Positions 9,509 to 37,333 of a DNA stretch of 41,575 bases are shown in pieces. Below the pieces are notes generated by a model that made no database searches, was not told the origin of the DNA, and was given only the letters and a program-made list of their open reading frames with translations. Origin of the DNA: an uncultured bacterium (lineage in GTDB: Bacteria > Bacillota_I > Bacilli_A > RFN20 > CAG-826); the NCBI GenBank assembly GCA_949285325.1, contig CASDYZ010000048.1, positions 1 through 41,575 on the forward strand, read 5' to 3'. Numbering within the stretch: the stretch's first letter is position 1; each line of letters begins with the position of its first letter. The position numbers and the translations under genes were made by a program.

Positions 9509-9599
9509 AGAGGAATACCCAAGTGGTTGAAGGGGGCAGTTTCGAAAACTGCTAGAAGATGCAAGTCTTGCAGGGGTTCAAATCCCCTTTCCTCTGCCA
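9509..9599 (+). tRNA. tRNA-Ser (anticodon CGA)
   Basis: 91 nt with encoded CCA. Acceptor AGAGGAA / TTCCTCT, discriminator G, anticodon stem GCAGT/ACTGC with loop TTCGAAA, long variable arm, T-loop GTTCAAATC. Confidence 0.92.
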
Positions 9600-9618
9600 A
9601 TTATTTAAATACACACTC

Positions 9619-9644
9619 AATATCCGTCCATCGGATATTTTTTT
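9619..9644 (+). terminator. Terminator after tRNA-Ser(CGA)
   Basis: AATATCCG (9619-9626), loop TCCAT, CGGATATT (9632-9639), then a T run to 9644. Confidence 0.8.
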
Positions 9645-9721
9645 ATTTAGTTAGATAAGTAACTGATTTAAATCTTTTTAAAATGTGGAACATAATCAAT
9701 TGCAAATACTAAAATTAAAAT

Positions 9722-9790
9722 ATATTTGGGAAAAAATATACGTTGAAATAGGGAAAAAATCTACATTGAAATAGGGAAAAAATCTACATT
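9722..9790 (+). repeat. Three 23-bp direct repeats upstream of ATPase gene 1
   Basis: Units at 9722-9744, 9745-9767 and 9768-9790. The last two are identical: GAAATAGGGAAAA followed by AATCTACATT. The first matches at 17 of 23 positions and keeps the GGGAAAAAAT core. The array ends 4 bp upstream of the -35 box of the ATPase gene, as expected for an operator or activator site. Confidence 0.85.
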
Positions 9791-9794
9791 GGCT

Positions 9795-9823
9795 TTGACT
9801 TTTTGTTTGAGATTTGTTATTAA
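9795..9823 (+). promoter_or_regulatory. Promoter of ATPase gene 1
   Basis: TTGACT (9795-9800), 17 bp, TATTAA (9818-9823). The ribosome site AGGGAG follows about 10 nt later, before the ATG at 9845. Confidence 0.55.
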
Positions 9824-9844
9824 TTTATTAGGGAGAAAGTTAAA

Positions 9845-11128
9845 ATGAAACAATATTTGCCTAGATATTTAGATGATATATTAGAAGAGATGCTCACTTA
9901 TGTCGGCGCGGTTTTAATAGTTGGACCAAAATGGGTTGGAAAAACAACCACTGCCGAAAGGCACGCGAAAAGTATCTTAAAAATGCAAGATCCAGACATG
10001 ATTAAATCGTATTTAGCAACCGTTGAAATAAAACCTTCAATATTGCTTCAAGGTGAAACGCCAAGATTGATAGATGAATGGCAAGTCGCCCCTATCATTT
10101 GGGATGCGGTGCGGGCTAAGGTTGATGAAATAGGTAAAACTGGTCTATTTATACTAACTGGTTCGACTTCTATTGATAGAAGTAAGATTATGCATTCTGG
10201 AACAGGTAGAATAGCTAGATTGATGTTGTATCCTATGAGTCTATATGAGTCGAACGATTCTAACGGGAAAATTTCTTTAACTGCATTATTTGATAATAAA
10301 AAAATCGATATTGACGGAATAAAATCTAACTTATCGATTGAAGATTTAATACTGACTGCTTGTAGAGGTGGTTGGCCTACTACTTTAGATAAAGATAAAA
10401 AATCATCCATTATGATAGCAAAATTATATTTAGATAATATTTGTGAAGAAGATTGTTCGAGTGTGGATGGAGTAAAAAGAAATCCTCGAAGAATGAGGAC
10501 AATACTAAGTTCTTACGCGAGAAATATTTCTACATTAGCAAGTGGTAAGACTTTACTTGATGATGTTAGCGCAAACGATATAAATATGGATTCTAGAACG
10601 TTAAAATCATATTTAACTGCTTTAGAAAAACTATATGTTATTGAGGAAGTTCCAGCGTGGTGCCCTAATATTCGCTCAGCGAGTGCGATAAGAAGCTCTA
10701 ATAAAAGAGAATTTATCGATCCTTCCATCGCTGTTGCGGCATTAAATTTATCACCAGAATTATTGCTTCATGATTTAAATACTTTTGGTTTTATTTTTGA
10801 AACATTATGTATTAGAGATTTAAAAGTTTATTCATCTAAATTAGGTGGATCTGTATCTTATTACCACGATAAATATGGATTAGAGGCTGATTGTGTTTTA
10901 CATTTAAATGATGGACGTTACGCATTAATCGAATTTAAATTAGGTGGAAAACAAATTGATGAAGGGGCTAAACATCTTTTAAAAATAAAAGAATTAATAT
11001 TACAAGCAAATAAAGAAAATAAAAATATCAAAGAACCTGATTTACTAATGGTAATTACTGGTGGCGAAATGGCCTATACGAGAAAAGACGGGGTTAGGGT
11101 TGTTCCAATAGGATGTTTGAAAGCTTAA
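9845..11128 (+). CDS. AAA-type ATPase with DUF4143-like nuclease-fold C-terminus (copy 1)
   Basis: 427 residues. Walker A is GPKWVGKTTT (about 27-36) and Walker B/sensor RLIDEWQ, then FILTGSTS as in AAA_14 ATPases. The C-terminal part is DUF4143-like and ends with a PD-(D/E)XK-like pattern: LEADCVLHLNDGRY followed by ALIEFKLG. This widespread prokaryotic family has no proven function; the nuclease-like fold and variable copy number suggest a selfish, defence or mobile role, which is inference. It is a paralogue of the gene at 30816-32090 (shared GPKWxGKTTT, RxHAK, LxxDEWQ and PxACLKx end). Its promoter carries three 23-bp repeats and it lies beside tRNA-Ser(CGA). The ribosome site is AGGGAG. 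Confidence 0.85.
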   Translation: MKQYLPRYLDDILEEMLTYVGAVLIVGPKWVGKTTTAERHAKSILKMQDPDMIKSYLATVEIKPSILLQGETPRLIDEWQVAPIIWDAVRAKVDEIGKTGLFILTGSTSIDRSKIMHSGTGRIARLMLYPMSLYESNDSNGKISLTALFDNKKIDIDGIKSNLSIEDLILTACRGGWPTTLDKDKKSSIMIAKLYLDNICEEDCSSVDGVKRNPRRMRTILSSYARNISTLASGKTLLDDVSANDINMDSRTLKSYLTALEKLYVIEEVPAWCPNIRSASAIRSSNKREFIDPSIAVAALNLSPELLLHDLNTFGFIFETLCIRDLKVYSSKLGGSVSYYHDKYGLEADCVLHLNDGRYALIEFKLGGKQIDEGAKHLLKIKELILQANKENKNIKEPDLLMVITGGEMAYTRKDGVRVVPIGCLKA

Positions 11129-11251
11129 TAGTCAATAAGCATATATTCATATTTTGTTATTTAGATTAAAGTTTTAAAAAATTTAGATAAAAAATGTAAG
11201 ATTTAATTTAACTTACATAATATAAAATGCTACACCGCAAATTAAACTATA

Positions 11252-30815: not shown

Positions 30816-32090
30816 TTAAGGTTTTAAACAGGCAAGTGGTACGACATATACACCATCTTCTCTTTTATATGCGTATTGATTTTTCGAAATTACTAATAAA
30901 AATGTAGCTTTTTCGATTAAATCATTATTTATCTTTTTAAGGTTTGTGGCAGCTAAATCTATGTCGTCGTCATTTCCTAATTTAATTTCAACTAATCCAA
31001 AACTACCATCATTAAAAAGAATAACCGCATCTGCTTCTCTTTCTAAACTATCTTTGTAATGATAAATTGAAGCATCAATAACACTAGCGTAGATTTTTAA
31101 ATCTCTAATCGCTAAAGATTCAAATAAAAACCCAAAATAATTCATATTTTTAAATAAAGATTGAGGTGATTGTCCAAGTGCTGCGCTAGCAATAGATGGA
31201 TCGACAAAATATCTTGTATTTTTTGTTCTAATAGCAGTTTTGCTACGTAGATTAGTATTCCACGCCACTACTTCATCAATTACAAATAATCTTTGCAAAG
31301 CTGAAAAATATTTTTCAAAAGTTCTACTATCAATATTTACATCATTAATTATTGTTGAATCTGGACACTGCGTACCAATATTTCTAGCATAAGATCTAAG
31401 TAGTTTCACTGAAACTAGTTCATTTTTTTTCAAATCTAAATCTTTCAAAGAAAAAATGTCATCTTGATATAGAATTGTAAAATAATCCTTTGCTTGTTGT
31501 AACGCTACTTTTTCACTCTTATTAAGAGAGAGTGGCCATCCACCTCTACAAATATAAAAAGCATAATCAAAAATGGTTTTATTTGAGCTACTAGGTTTAA
31601 AATTACCTTCTTTTAAATCAATAAGCGATACGCTTCCATTACTTTCACCACTTTCAAAGAGCGACATCGTTCTCATTAGTTTTTTTGTGATTCTTCCATT
31701 TCCGGTGTGTTGCTCTTTAGTTATATCTTCATCATAATCAGATTTTCCTAATTTATAAGTAACACTACCAGACAAAATATATTGTCCAAATTCGCCTGTT
31801 TTATCTACCTCAACTTTTATATAGTCCCAAATAAAAGAAATCATTTGCCATTCATCGATAAAGATTGGTTTCTCTCCTTGGTTTAAAAAATATTCTGGCG
31901 AAATTTTTGCAAGTTCGATAATTTCTTTTCTAGTATTTAAAGGCATTAAATCAACAATAGTTTTTGCGTGTCTTCTGCACGTTGTTGTTTTACCGCACCA
32001 TTTAGGTCCAACAACTAAAATTGCCCCTTTACTTTCTAAAGAAAAATCTAATATTTCATCAAATAGTCTTGGAATATACTCGTTTTTCAT
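30816..32090 (-). CDS. AAA-type ATPase with DUF4143-like nuclease-fold C-terminus (copy 2)
   Basis: 424 residues, paralogous along its length to the gene at 9845-11128. Walker A GPKWCGKTTT, Walker B IFIDEWQMISFIWDYI, then YILSGSVT. The C-terminus carries EREADAVILFNDGSFGLVEI followed by KLG, a PD-(D/E)XK-like pattern, and both paralogues end in PLACLK/PIGCLK. The function of the family is unknown. Upstream lie a TTGATA-17-TAAAAT promoter with only 6 nt to the ATG (no ribosome site) and four 23-bp direct repeats. It is next to tRNA-Ser(GGA) but transcribed towards it. Confidence 0.85.
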   Translation of the reverse strand: MKNEYIPRLFDEILDFSLESKGAILVVGPKWCGKTTTCRRHAKTIVDLMPLNTRKEIIELAKISPEYFLNQGEKPIFIDEWQMISFIWDYIKVEVDKTGEFGQYILSGSVTYKLGKSDYDEDITKEQHTGNGRITKKLMRTMSLFESGESNGSVSLIDLKEGNFKPSSSNKTIFDYAFYICRGGWPLSLNKSEKVALQQAKDYFTILYQDDIFSLKDLDLKKNELVSVKLLRSYARNIGTQCPDSTIINDVNIDSRTFEKYFSALQRLFVIDEVVAWNTNLRSKTAIRTKNTRYFVDPSIASAALGQSPQSLFKNMNYFGFLFESLAIRDLKIYASVIDASIYHYKDSLEREADAVILFNDGSFGLVEIKLGNDDDIDLAATNLKKINNDLIEKATFLLVISKNQYAYKREDGVYVVPLACLKP

Positions 32091-32125: not shown

Positions 32126-32130
32126 GCACA

Positions 32131-32222
32131 ATCCAAAAAATATCAGTAAATTAATCCAAGAAATATGAGTAAATTAGTCCAAGAAATATGAGTAAAGTAA
32201 TACATGAAATGTGAGTAAAATA
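32131..32222 (-). repeat. Four 23-bp direct repeats upstream of ATPase gene 2
   Basis: Units 32131-32153, 32154-32176, 32177-32199 and 32200-32222 follow each other without gaps. Plus-strand consensus is ATCCAAGAAATATGAG followed by TAAATTA; units 2 and 3 differ at two positions, units 1 and 4 are more diverged. The array starts 5 bp upstream of the -35 box. 32223-32423 holds nothing else that I can identify. Confidence 0.85.
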
Positions 32223-32423
32223 ATTGACAAAAATTTTCTAGGACGGATTATTCTAAACCAAACTATTTTAAATGCTTTCAATATTTGATATAACCTAGAA
32301 ATCTAAAAGATATTGCTAAATTAGTTTAAACTTCGTGTTTCTCTGTAATAGGGCATTTAAACACACGGTATAGGATTAGACTATATTTTTATCAATGAGC
32401 TTTTATTCTTTAATATGTGTTAA

Positions 32424-32933
32424 TTATCGATATTTATCTATTCTAATCGAATCGAAATTTTATCAAGAAGTACTTTGCCTCCTATGCAAACTCTTGATGG
32501 TTTTTTTGAAGGACATTCTGTACCAGTAAATGAGAAACTATCCGAGTTGTTTTTACAATTACACATCAGTGAAAAAACTAATAGAGGAATCCCCACTATT
32601 ACTAATAAATATGGTAAGAAAGCAATAGCCATAAACGAAAATACAATAGTAGTAACTATACCATTTAATCGTATCAATGAAGTGGGTAATAAAGTGGGTA
32701 ATTAATTACTTACCAAATCTCAAACACGAGTCCTCGCGGAAATTAGAAATAATCCAAATATTACTAAATCTCAATTAATGATAAAATGCGAGTTAAGTAA
32801 AACATCGATTGATAAAAATATTAAAGCTTTAAAAGATAAGAACTATATAAAAAGACAAGGTTCAAAAAAGACTGGATATTGGGAAGTTATAGAAGAAAAA
32901 GAACAAGATTTTAATAATGTCTTAAATGATTAA
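32424..32933 (+). pseudogene. C-terminal remnant of an AlbA_2/Schlafen-type ATP-binding winged-helix regulator
   Basis: The frame opens after a TAA at 32421 and reads FIYSNRIEILSRSTLPPM, FFEGHSVPVNEKLSELFLQL, SEKTNRGIPTITNKYGKKA and VTIPFNRINEVGNKVGN. This is the well-known C-terminal half of AlbA_2 (Schlafen-like) ATP-binding proteins. An in-frame TAA at 32703-32705 interrupts it, and the same frame goes on into a winged helix (LLTKSQTRVLAEIRNNPNIT, LSKTSIDKNIKALKDKNYIK, GSKKTGYWEVIEE) ending at 32933. The N-terminal AlbA_2 domain (about 250 residues) is missing. It is therefore a truncated, stop-interrupted relic in the tRNA-Ser-linked island. Confidence 0.82.
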
Positions 32934-33212
32934 TGTAAAAAGAAATTGATGTTATTATTGATAAATCATCTAGTTCTTAATTTGGCTATGTGGTTTTTAT
33001 GCCTAGATGATATTTTTAACTTGTTTCAATTTACACTGCCGCCAAAATTGCTTTTAAATCTTCATTCGGTGGATAAGAAAGCGCTTTAGTTATATTAAAC
33101 AAAGATAGTTTTAACATTTAAAAGATAATTCTAAATATAAATCTTAATAAATTTATAAAACTATACATTGTCTAATAATTATCTATATAAACGTATCTTA
33201 ATAAAAAGCATT
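32934..33212. other. Intergenic region with long-loop inverted repeat
   Basis: ATCATCTAG (32965-32973) and CTAGATGAT (33003-33011) form a 9-bp stem with a 29-nt loop, followed by a T-rich stretch; possibly a terminator of the decayed regulator gene. A 28-codon minus-strand frame at 33117-33031 is present but unsupported. Confidence 0.35.
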
Positions 33213-36022: not shown

Positions 36023-37333
36023 TTAATAAATACATATCGAAAAAATAAAAAATACAAATAATCTTAAATTGACGACTGATTGTAAATCTAAACTATTTTT
36101 ATTAAGCAAAAATTCTTCAAGTGAGATTATTAAAATTCCCCTTTCGTTTGTATATGATAAAAATGGTCTATTGATAACTAAAATCTTTTTAAAAGAATTT
36201 TTTACTTTAATCAATACATCATATTAATTTTCTAAATGTTTGCTATAAGGTATATCATCCATAATTTGAATGAAATATTCTTTACTAGATATTCTTGCAA
36301 TAAAATCTATTTCGCTTTGAACATAGACATATTTTCCTTCTTTATTTTTCTTTTTCTGCGTCAGGAATCCAACATCGACTCTATATCCTCTACCCACGAG
36401 TTCATTGTACACTACATTTTCAATTAAAAATCCTTGATTAGTTTCTCTGAAGTTGATGCGTATATTCCTAAGTCCAATATCTTGGCAGTAATATTTACAT
36501 GGTGTATTTAAATATTTATTCGTCCGTATGTCATATCTATTTACTTTATCAAAAAGGAAAGCGTCGGTTATCTCTTCGAAAAATCTAGTTATCGTCTCAT
36601 TATCAATTTTTATTTTTCTTTCACTATATAAATAATTAGCCATGTTGAGAGGATTAGTTAAAGAACCAGTAACAGCGCAAAGTGCATCGACAATCATATA
36701 TAATTCATCGATTAAATTAGTGTTGATATTTCTTCTAATATCATCGATATACACTTTTTTCATTAAATTGTCTAAATATCTTTCTTTTGCTAAATCGGTT
36801 TCCTCTTCAAAAAGTCCAGGCATCCCACCGTATCTAATATATTCATTTAATGCGAAGCGTTTATCTTTTTGATAGGTATCGTAAAACTCACTAAAATAGA
36901 GAGGACGGACATTAATCTCACTACCTCTATCTTTAAATTCATCATTTATATCTTTAGATAAAAATTTAGAATTAGAACCTGTGATATATACATCATAATT
37001 TGGATGTTTGTTAAGTGAATTGACACATCGAACAAAATCATTAGCTAATTGAACTTCATCGATAAATATATAATATTGAGTTTTGTCATCGTTTGCCTTA
37101 TTTTCTATATATTCTCTCAACTTGCCTTTTTCTCTTAATGCATCATTTTCTTCATCATCTAATTGAACGATAATAATTTGATTTTCATTAACTCCATTTT
37201 CAATTAGATACTGCTTATATATTTTTAAAAGTAAAAAAGATTTACCACATCTTCTAAGGCCAGTGATAATCTTAACTTTTGAAGAATGCCTTTTTGAAAT
37301 TAATTGATTTAAATAAAAATCTCTCTTAATCAT
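36023..37333 (-). pseudogene. AAA_14/DUF4143 ATPase (copy 3) interrupted near the C-terminus by TAA
   Basis: The first 369 codons (37333-36227) give an ATPase of a different DUF4143 subgroup: Walker A TGLRRCGKSF, Walker B YYIFIDEVQLAN, then YITGSNSKFLS, and the C-terminal YNELVGRGYRVDVGFL. They end at a TAA at 36226-36224 in SKHLEN-stop. The same frame continues with YDV, then IKVKNSFKKILVINRPFLSY and GILIISLEEFLLNKNSLDL, exactly the usual end of this family. A single change (for example GAA to TAA) explains the break. The product lacks its last strand-helix elements, so it is probably inactive, though the ATPase part could still fold. Ribosome site GGAG. Function of the family unknown. Confidence 0.8.

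What the first reader, a model, noticed from the sequence alone, without database searches (positions are those of the whole stretch)
9722..9823. Exact 23-bp direct repeats abut the promoter of ATPase/DUF4143 gene 1
Three units of 23 bp (two identical, one at 17 of 23) end 4 bp before a TTGACT-17-TATTAA promoter. ATPase gene 2 (next finding) has the same design with a different repeat sequence: same period, same place. Repeats spaced about two helical turns apart against the -35 suggest cooperative binding of a protein, possibly the ATPase itself or a partner. DUF4143 ATPases are very common and have no known function, so a shared, element-specific cis array would be a first handle on what they do.
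Basis: partly seen in the sequence, partly recalled or inferred. Interest (0 to 1): 0.75.

Follow-up and report, generated by a model that had tools for sequence, protein, structure and literature searches.

The report
Fixed-spacing operator arrays of DUF4143 ATPases
A very common but uncharacterised ATPase-nuclease gene family, catalogued as an anti-phage defence candidate, almost always carries its own private set of DNA repeats spaced exactly 23 letters apart at its promoter, in bacteria and archaea alike, which suggests that each protein binds and controls its own gene.

Summary
A 23-bp direct-repeat array (9728-9791, 2.8 copies) lies 3 bp before TTGACT-17-TATTAA and the AAA_14/DUF4143 gene 9845-11128; shuffles reach score 12 against 35 observed. 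It is not a local oddity. Of 147 homologues of this subfamily, 130 have a best repeat spacing of exactly 23 (or 46), mean score 31 against about 6 at every other spacing. They come from several bacterial phyla and methanogenic archaea, down to about 29% protein identity. Neighbouring genes show it in 2 of 361 cases, one of them itself a family member. A sister clade in the same genome uses 33±1 bp; two other DUF4143 clades have none. Unit sequence differs between proteins, tracks protein divergence (Mantel r 0.56) and not the host, and shares a weak consensus. In its own genome the unit occurs only in the array. A congeneric empty site shows that array plus gene is the whole 1.6-kb cassette. 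The protein is an intact AAA+ / winged-helix / PD-(D/E)xK protein (PADLOC PDC-S01). Best explanation: the ATPase assembles head-to-tail on its own iteron-like operator and represses its promoter. Binding and repression are inferred, not shown. I found no paper describing these arrays.

The parts
9728..9791 (+). Array 1: head-to-tail 23-bp units GGGAAAAAATMTACRTTGAAATA, 2.8 copies (9728-9750, 9751-9773, 9774-9791)
9795..9823 (+). Promoter TTGACT (9795-9800) - 17 bp - TATTAA (9818-9823), 3 bp after the array
   Evidence: consensus match only
9830..9835 (+). Shine-Dalgarno-like AGGGAG, 9 bp before ATG
   Evidence: by eye
9845..11128 (+). AAA_14 + DUF4143 protein (427 aa, PADLOC PDC-S01): AAA+ (1-205), winged-helix region (about 214-275), PD-(D/E)xK-like domain (about 311-421)
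9606..11249 (+). Whole cassette (array + gene) absent from the same locus of the congeneric genome G001, just after tRNA-Ser; exact ends uncertain by some 20 bp
32130..32224 (-). Array 2: 4.1 units of 23 bp of a different sequence (TTTACTCATATTTCTTGGATTAA in the gene's direction)
30816..32090 (-). Paralogous clade-A AAA_14/DUF4143 gene (424 aa), 46% identical to gene 1
36224..37333 (-). Third DUF4143 gene, of a different clade, without an array: internal contrast

Best explanation
Each clade-A DUF4143 (PDC-S01) gene is a one-gene cassette with a private operator. The encoded AAA+ / winged-helix / PD-(D/E)xK protein recognises an asymmetric core of about 18 bp that recurs every 23 bp in one orientation. 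Protomers sit head to tail, one per unit (2.2 turns, so each is rotated about 60-70 degrees from the last), as AAA+ proteins pack in a spiral. The assembly lies on or against the -35 region in bacteria, and across the place where the promoter must be in several methanogens, so it represses its own transcription and keeps a potentially dangerous ATPase-nuclease scarce. Sister clade B does the same with one more helical turn between sites (33±1 bp). A trigger, perhaps phage infection or a change in nucleotide state, would release or activate the protein. Shown: array, exact period, clade specificity, co-inheritance, uniqueness in the genome, cassette limits, position at the promoter, intact active-site residues. 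Inferred: binding by the gene's own product (about 0.8), autorepression rather than another outcome (about 0.65), nuclease or defence function and trigger (open).
For: Period exactly 23 (115) or 46 (15) in 130 of 147 homologues; mean lag score 31.2 at 23 against 5.1-6.0 at every other lag 18-29. 137/147 by a laxer rule, median 2.9 copies, 52 bp before ATG. Same in Bacillota, Bacteroidota, Spirochaetes, archaea (Methanobrevibacter, Methanosphaera), Actinobacteria, Chlorobi and phage/viral contigs, down to 29% identity. Controls: 64/77 targets against 2/361 neighbouring genes, p = 5e-61, one of the two being a clade-A gene itself; own-genome background. Unit similarity tracks protein identity (Mantel r 0.56, permutation p 0.001; reverse complement r -0.39, so orientation is fixed to the gene) and not the host genome (same-genome residual 0.007 ± 0.010). 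Shared degenerate consensus (about ACCNCAAAA...AARYRAAAT, 7.4 bits against about 2.9 in column-permuted controls). Unit found nowhere else in its genome. Cassette = array + gene in an empty-site comparison and in three different contexts, so the only protein travelling with the array is the ATPase. Arrays end 0-13 bp before, or cover, the predicted -35; clade B units often contain the -35; some archaeal arrays end 8-11 bp before ATG. No inverted-repeat enrichment, as expected for head-to-tail binding. AlphaFold2 model, pLDDT 93, with a winged-helix region; structural neighbours include DNA-bound Cdc6/Orc1 and DnaA. Walker A/B and E319, D349, E363, K365 essentially invariant in 137 proteins.
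Against: No binding, expression or activity data. Co-variation of unit and protein would also follow from simple co-inheritance. The segment-wise test that picks the winged helix (231-255, partial r 0.16) is weak. About 7-12% of clade-A genes have no clear array. In some 60% of the Bacilli examples the array stops before the predicted -35, a place that would also suit an activator; predicted -35 position and array end are hardly correlated (r 0.16). Two DUF4143 clades do without any array.
Confidence: 0.66

Rival explanations
1. The array is the ATPase's binding site, but its main job is not repression. It is a loading or sentinel site where the ATPase-nuclease waits, and it is released or fired when phage action disturbs the locus, or it marks self DNA.
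For: PADLOC lists the family as candidate defence PDC-S01; the nuclease site is intact; the unit exists only at its own locus; arrays of up to 10 units exceed what a simple operator needs.
Against: The constant position at the promoter and the overlap with -35 or archaeal promoter regions are most simply regulatory. Nothing here tests defence.
Confidence: 0.15
2. The array is a cis site for movement or copying of the cassette (iterons or transposon-like end) on which the AAA+ protein acts as initiator or target selector.
For: The cassette is mobile (empty site); Orc1/DnaA-like fold neighbours; iterons of 22-24 bp with a similar motif exist in phage replication genes; 3 of 63 loci have a second same-orientation array downstream.
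Against: Array on one side only in 60 of 63 loci, no inverted ends found, no recombinase in the cassette. The promoter position is unexplained.
Confidence: 0.1
3. The bound protein activates the promoter, or the array is bound by a host protein rather than by the ATPase.
For: Most Bacilli arrays end 0-13 bp upstream of the predicted -35, where activators sit.
Against: Unit follows the protein and not the host; same 23-bp rule in archaea and bacteria; the unit is unique in the genome. Against activation: consensus-like promoters in several members and arrays covering the core promoter in others.
Confidence: 0.09

Closest known systems
PADLOC PDC-S01 (AAA_14 + DUF4143; candidate single-gene defence system)
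   Same: All eight genes of this genome match Pfam DUF4143 and the seven proteins scanned match PDC-S01 models. PMC12988326: 4th most common defence across prokaryotes, ATPase fused to PD-(D/E)xK.
   Different: I found no description of a cis array or of a clade-specific period; the system is unvalidated.
Iteron-binding plasmid initiators with autorepression (RepA/RepE/pi; background knowledge)
   Same: Head-to-tail repeats of about 20-23 bp bound by a winged-helix protein at its own promoter.
   Different: Here an AAA+ / PD-(D/E)xK protein, chromosomal cassette, no replicon; period fixed at exactly 23 or 33±1 by clade.
DnaA boxes / Orc1-Cdc6 origin boxes (AAA+ plus HTH/WH initiators)
   Same: AAA+ with DNA-binding HTH assembling on repeated sites; DnaA represses its own promoter (background knowledge); fold neighbours 2qby and 1l8q.
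   Different: No origin here, extra nuclease-like domain, unit sequence specific to each cassette; TM-scores low (0.21-0.26).
Archaeal ATPases PABY2304 (2qen) and SSO1545 (2fna)
   Same: Best fold matches, TM 0.38-0.43 of query.
   Different: No sequence match to any PDB chain at E 0.01; I know of no array reported for them.

Membership tests
Pfam AAA_14 + DUF4143 proteins | Both domains over gathering score | tested here: met
   108.8 and 49.1 bits against 28.1 and 27
PADLOC PDC-S01 | Match to PDC-S01 profile over full length | tested here: met
   PDLC04790 E 4e-59, residues 1-425
PADLOC PDC-S01 | Anti-phage activity | not testable with these tools
Active PD-(D/E)xK nuclease | Conserved E...D-x13-ExK on the core fold | tested here: met
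   E319, D349, E363, K365 at least 136/137; strands 336-365 and helices 311-329, 369-390; activity itself not testable
Active AAA+ ATPase | Walker A GxKWxGKT and Walker B DE | tested here: met
   K33, D77, E78 137/137
Iteron / autoregulated operator array | Head-to-tail repeats of fixed spacing at the promoter of the binder's gene | tested here: met
Iteron / autoregulated operator array | Gene product binds the repeats | not testable with these tools
   indirect only: cassette contents and co-variation
Iteron replicon | Replication origin function / own replicon | tested here: not met
   insertion between conserved flanking genes of the host genome
Transposon with repeat ends | Repeats at both ends, inverted; transposase | tested here: not met
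   array on one side in 60/63 loci, never inverted; cassette holds one gene

The most novel reading that the evidence does not exclude
A large, interdomain-mobile family of AAA+/PD-(D/E)xK immune-type proteins is built on one principle: each cassette carries a private address, a head-to-tail array whose period (23 bp, or 33±1 bp in the sister clade, one helical turn more) is set by the geometry of the protein's AAA+ spiral, with a constant rotation near 60 degrees per site. The array-bound assembly is the resting state of the defence and also its sensor.
Probability: 0.2. Interest if true: 0.93.

Novelty: new variant of a known kind. Interest (0 to 1): 0.8.

Why it matters
DUF4143/PDC-S01 is reported as the fourth most common defence entry in prokaryotes and the most frequent single locus in rumen genomes, yet its function is unknown (PMC12988326, PMC13356809). 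A near-universal, sequence-private, period-exact DNA site at its own promoter gives the family its first candidate ligand: binding, stoichiometry, ATP dependence, cryo-EM on short DNA and reporter assays become direct. The same rule in archaea and bacteria, with a clade-specific second period, indicates that spacing rather than sequence is under selection, which points to a defined multi-protomer assembly.

Tried and rejected
Inverted repeats at the promoters: no enrichment in any clade. Regulon idea: the unit occurs only in its array. Transposon-end idea: one-sided arrays. Phage decoy arrays: the window's unit occurs only singly in viral contigs. Tandem CCRCAAAA arrays in viral contigs look like ordinary iterons, about equally common at 22, 23 and 24 bp (12, 14, 8 contigs); those at 23 bp are not next to DUF4143 genes. 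Mapping of specificity residues by partial Mantel: only weak signal. PHROGs, NCBIfam and sequence search of the PDB: nothing. Literature on DUF4143, PDC-S01, AAA_14, COG1373 and such repeats: nothing on arrays found.

Full report
WHAT IS THERE. The array is as described. Units 9746-9768 and 9769-9791 are identical and 9723-9745 matches at 18 of 23; TRF gives 9728-9791, period 23, score 114. It ends 3 bp before TTGACT-17-TATTAA and 53 bp before the ATG at 9845. The lag-scan score is 35, against a maximum of 12 in 500 shuffles. The second gene (30816-32090, minus strand) has 4.1 units of a different 23-bp sequence at 32130-32224. In 534 kb of the same genome (406 upstream regions) no other gene scores above 18.

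THE FAMILY TEST. The genome (1.15 Mb) has eight DUF4143 genes. I collected homologues of gene 1 from the same taxonomic family (loci L030-L059, L080-L119) and from a collection with one genome per species (L120-L199, including methanogens, Bacteroidales, Clostridia, Treponema and Verrucomicrobia). Of 147 with at least 90 bp upstream, the best repeat spacing between 12 and 60 bp is exactly 23 in 115 and 46 in 15. The mean score is 31.2 at lag 23 and 5.1-6.0 at all other lags from 18 to 29. A laxer rule finds arrays in 137/147, median 2.9 and up to 10.3 copies, ending 52 bp (median) before ATG. Distant homologues on plasmids and a phage (Bacteroides, Collinsella, Prosthecochloris, Actinomyces oris at 29%, Lentilactobacillus hilgardii at 29%) all have 23 (or 46) as best spacing, although at scores of only 10-12 in the most distant, and so do the seven viral-contig homologues, one at a score of 11. 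In the same loci, other genes show a 23/46 array in 2 of 361 cases against 64 of 77 targets, and one of those two is itself a clade-A gene.

CLADES DIFFER. The L007/L004 clade of the same genome has arrays of 33 bp (some 32 or 34): 22/30 and 15/28 above threshold at 31-34 bp. The L006/L008 and L001/L002 clades have none beyond background (26/30 without, in each). On a 98-protein tree the clades are well supported and the label needs 14 changes against 45.6 in shuffles (quick method). The two periods differ by about one helical turn, and both leave a similar angular remainder (23 bp = 2.19 turns, 33-34 bp = 3.14-3.24 turns at 10.5 bp per turn). That reading is inference.

UNIT AND PROTEIN BELONG TOGETHER. 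Unit similarity rises with protein identity (Mantel r 0.56, none of 999 permutations above 0.19); the reverse complement gives -0.39, so the orientation relative to the gene is fixed. Paralogues in one genome are no more alike than expected from protein identity. All units share a degenerate consensus (7.4 bits against 2.8-3.1 in controls), and arrays tend to end at one phase, after position 16-19, which suggests a core of about 18 bp plus a short A/T-rich linker. In its own genome the core occurs only in the array, with up to three mismatches allowed. The co-variation alone would also result from co-inheritance; the constant spacing under changing sequence would not.

THE CASSETTE. In the congeneric genome G001 the flanks are collinear but window 9606-11249 is missing, just behind tRNA-Ser (9509-9599), leaving 25 bp. 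In G088 and G110, which hold 84%-identical genes elsewhere, DNA similarity to the window begins in or just before the array and ends at the stop codon. Array and gene are thus the unit that moves, and the ATPase is the only protein that travels with the array. A host factor is an unlikely binder.

PROTEIN. AAA_14 and DUF4143, PADLOC PDC-S01. The AlphaFold2 model (pLDDT 93, pTM 0.92) shows AAA+, a three-helix winged-helix region and a PD-(D/E)xK-like domain (the names of the last two rest on my reading of secondary structure and motifs, and on PMC12988326 for the PD-(D/E)xK fold of PDC-S01). K33, D77, E78, E319, D349, E363 and K365 are essentially invariant in 137 proteins. Fold neighbours include two archaeal ATPases, Cdc6/Orc1 on origin DNA, DnaA and NLR proteins, all with modest TM-scores. 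The stretch whose divergence best predicts unit divergence beyond overall identity is 231-255, in the winged-helix region, but the effect is weak (partial r 0.16).

POSITION AND MECHANISM. In the Bacilli set the predicted -35 starts 0-13 bp behind the array in about 60% and lies inside the last unit in most of the rest; in clade B it often lies inside the repeat. In several Methanobrevibacter genes the array ends 8-11 bp before ATG, so the promoter must lie within it. Direct, not inverted, repeats fit head-to-tail AAA+ packing. I therefore favour binding by the gene's own product and autorepression. Activation, a sentinel role and a role in mobility are the rivals. Promoter calls are consensus matches only, and none of the binding or regulation has been measured.

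KNOWN OR NEW. Searches of the paper library found one paper naming DUF4143 and three naming PDC-S01; the passages read do not mention arrays. Most subscription papers and all preprints are not held, so prior description elsewhere cannot be excluded. Iterons, DnaA boxes and Orc boxes are the known kinds this works like. Membership in a replicon or transposon class was tested and not met.

LIMITS. Homologues were chosen by similarity and are not independent of one another; clades B to D were sampled only within one taxonomic family; about 7-12% of clade-A genes lack a clear array; helical-angle arguments rest on an assumed 10.5 bp per turn.

Noticed in passing
L165 (193 bp after gene), L181 (3 kb after), L198 (76 bp after): A second array with the same unit and the same orientation lies downstream of the gene and not before another clade-A gene; possibly remnants of a lost copy or of an insertion event.
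   Followed up: partly
G000:C2:19718-24029 and C8:1299-5901: DUF4143 genes of different clades sit next to each other (three in a row on C2, two on C8); eight in a 1.15-Mb genome.
   Followed up: no
L345, L347, L349, L350, L351, L353, L356: Seven viral contigs of 13.6-14.4 kb carry 23-bp CCRCAAAA-type tandem arrays close to the end of a gene of 540-585 aa, without DUF4143 genes; look like iterons of an uncharacterised element.
   Followed up: partly
L346, L348, L352, L357, L358: Tandem 23-bp repeats lie inside an ORF of 256-320 aa that resembles a phage replisome-organiser (HTH) gene, as replication-origin iterons do (family not tested).
   Followed up: partly
window 32430-32950, + strand: Stop-broken remnant that looks like an ATP-binding/winged-helix regulator, lying divergently next to array 2 (family not tested).
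   Followed up: no
L035, 190-300 bp before the gene: A separate 44-bp tandem repeat (AACGAGTATGGGCCGTGTCTCAAACTCCCTACTG...) lies upstream of the 23-bp units.
   Followed up: no
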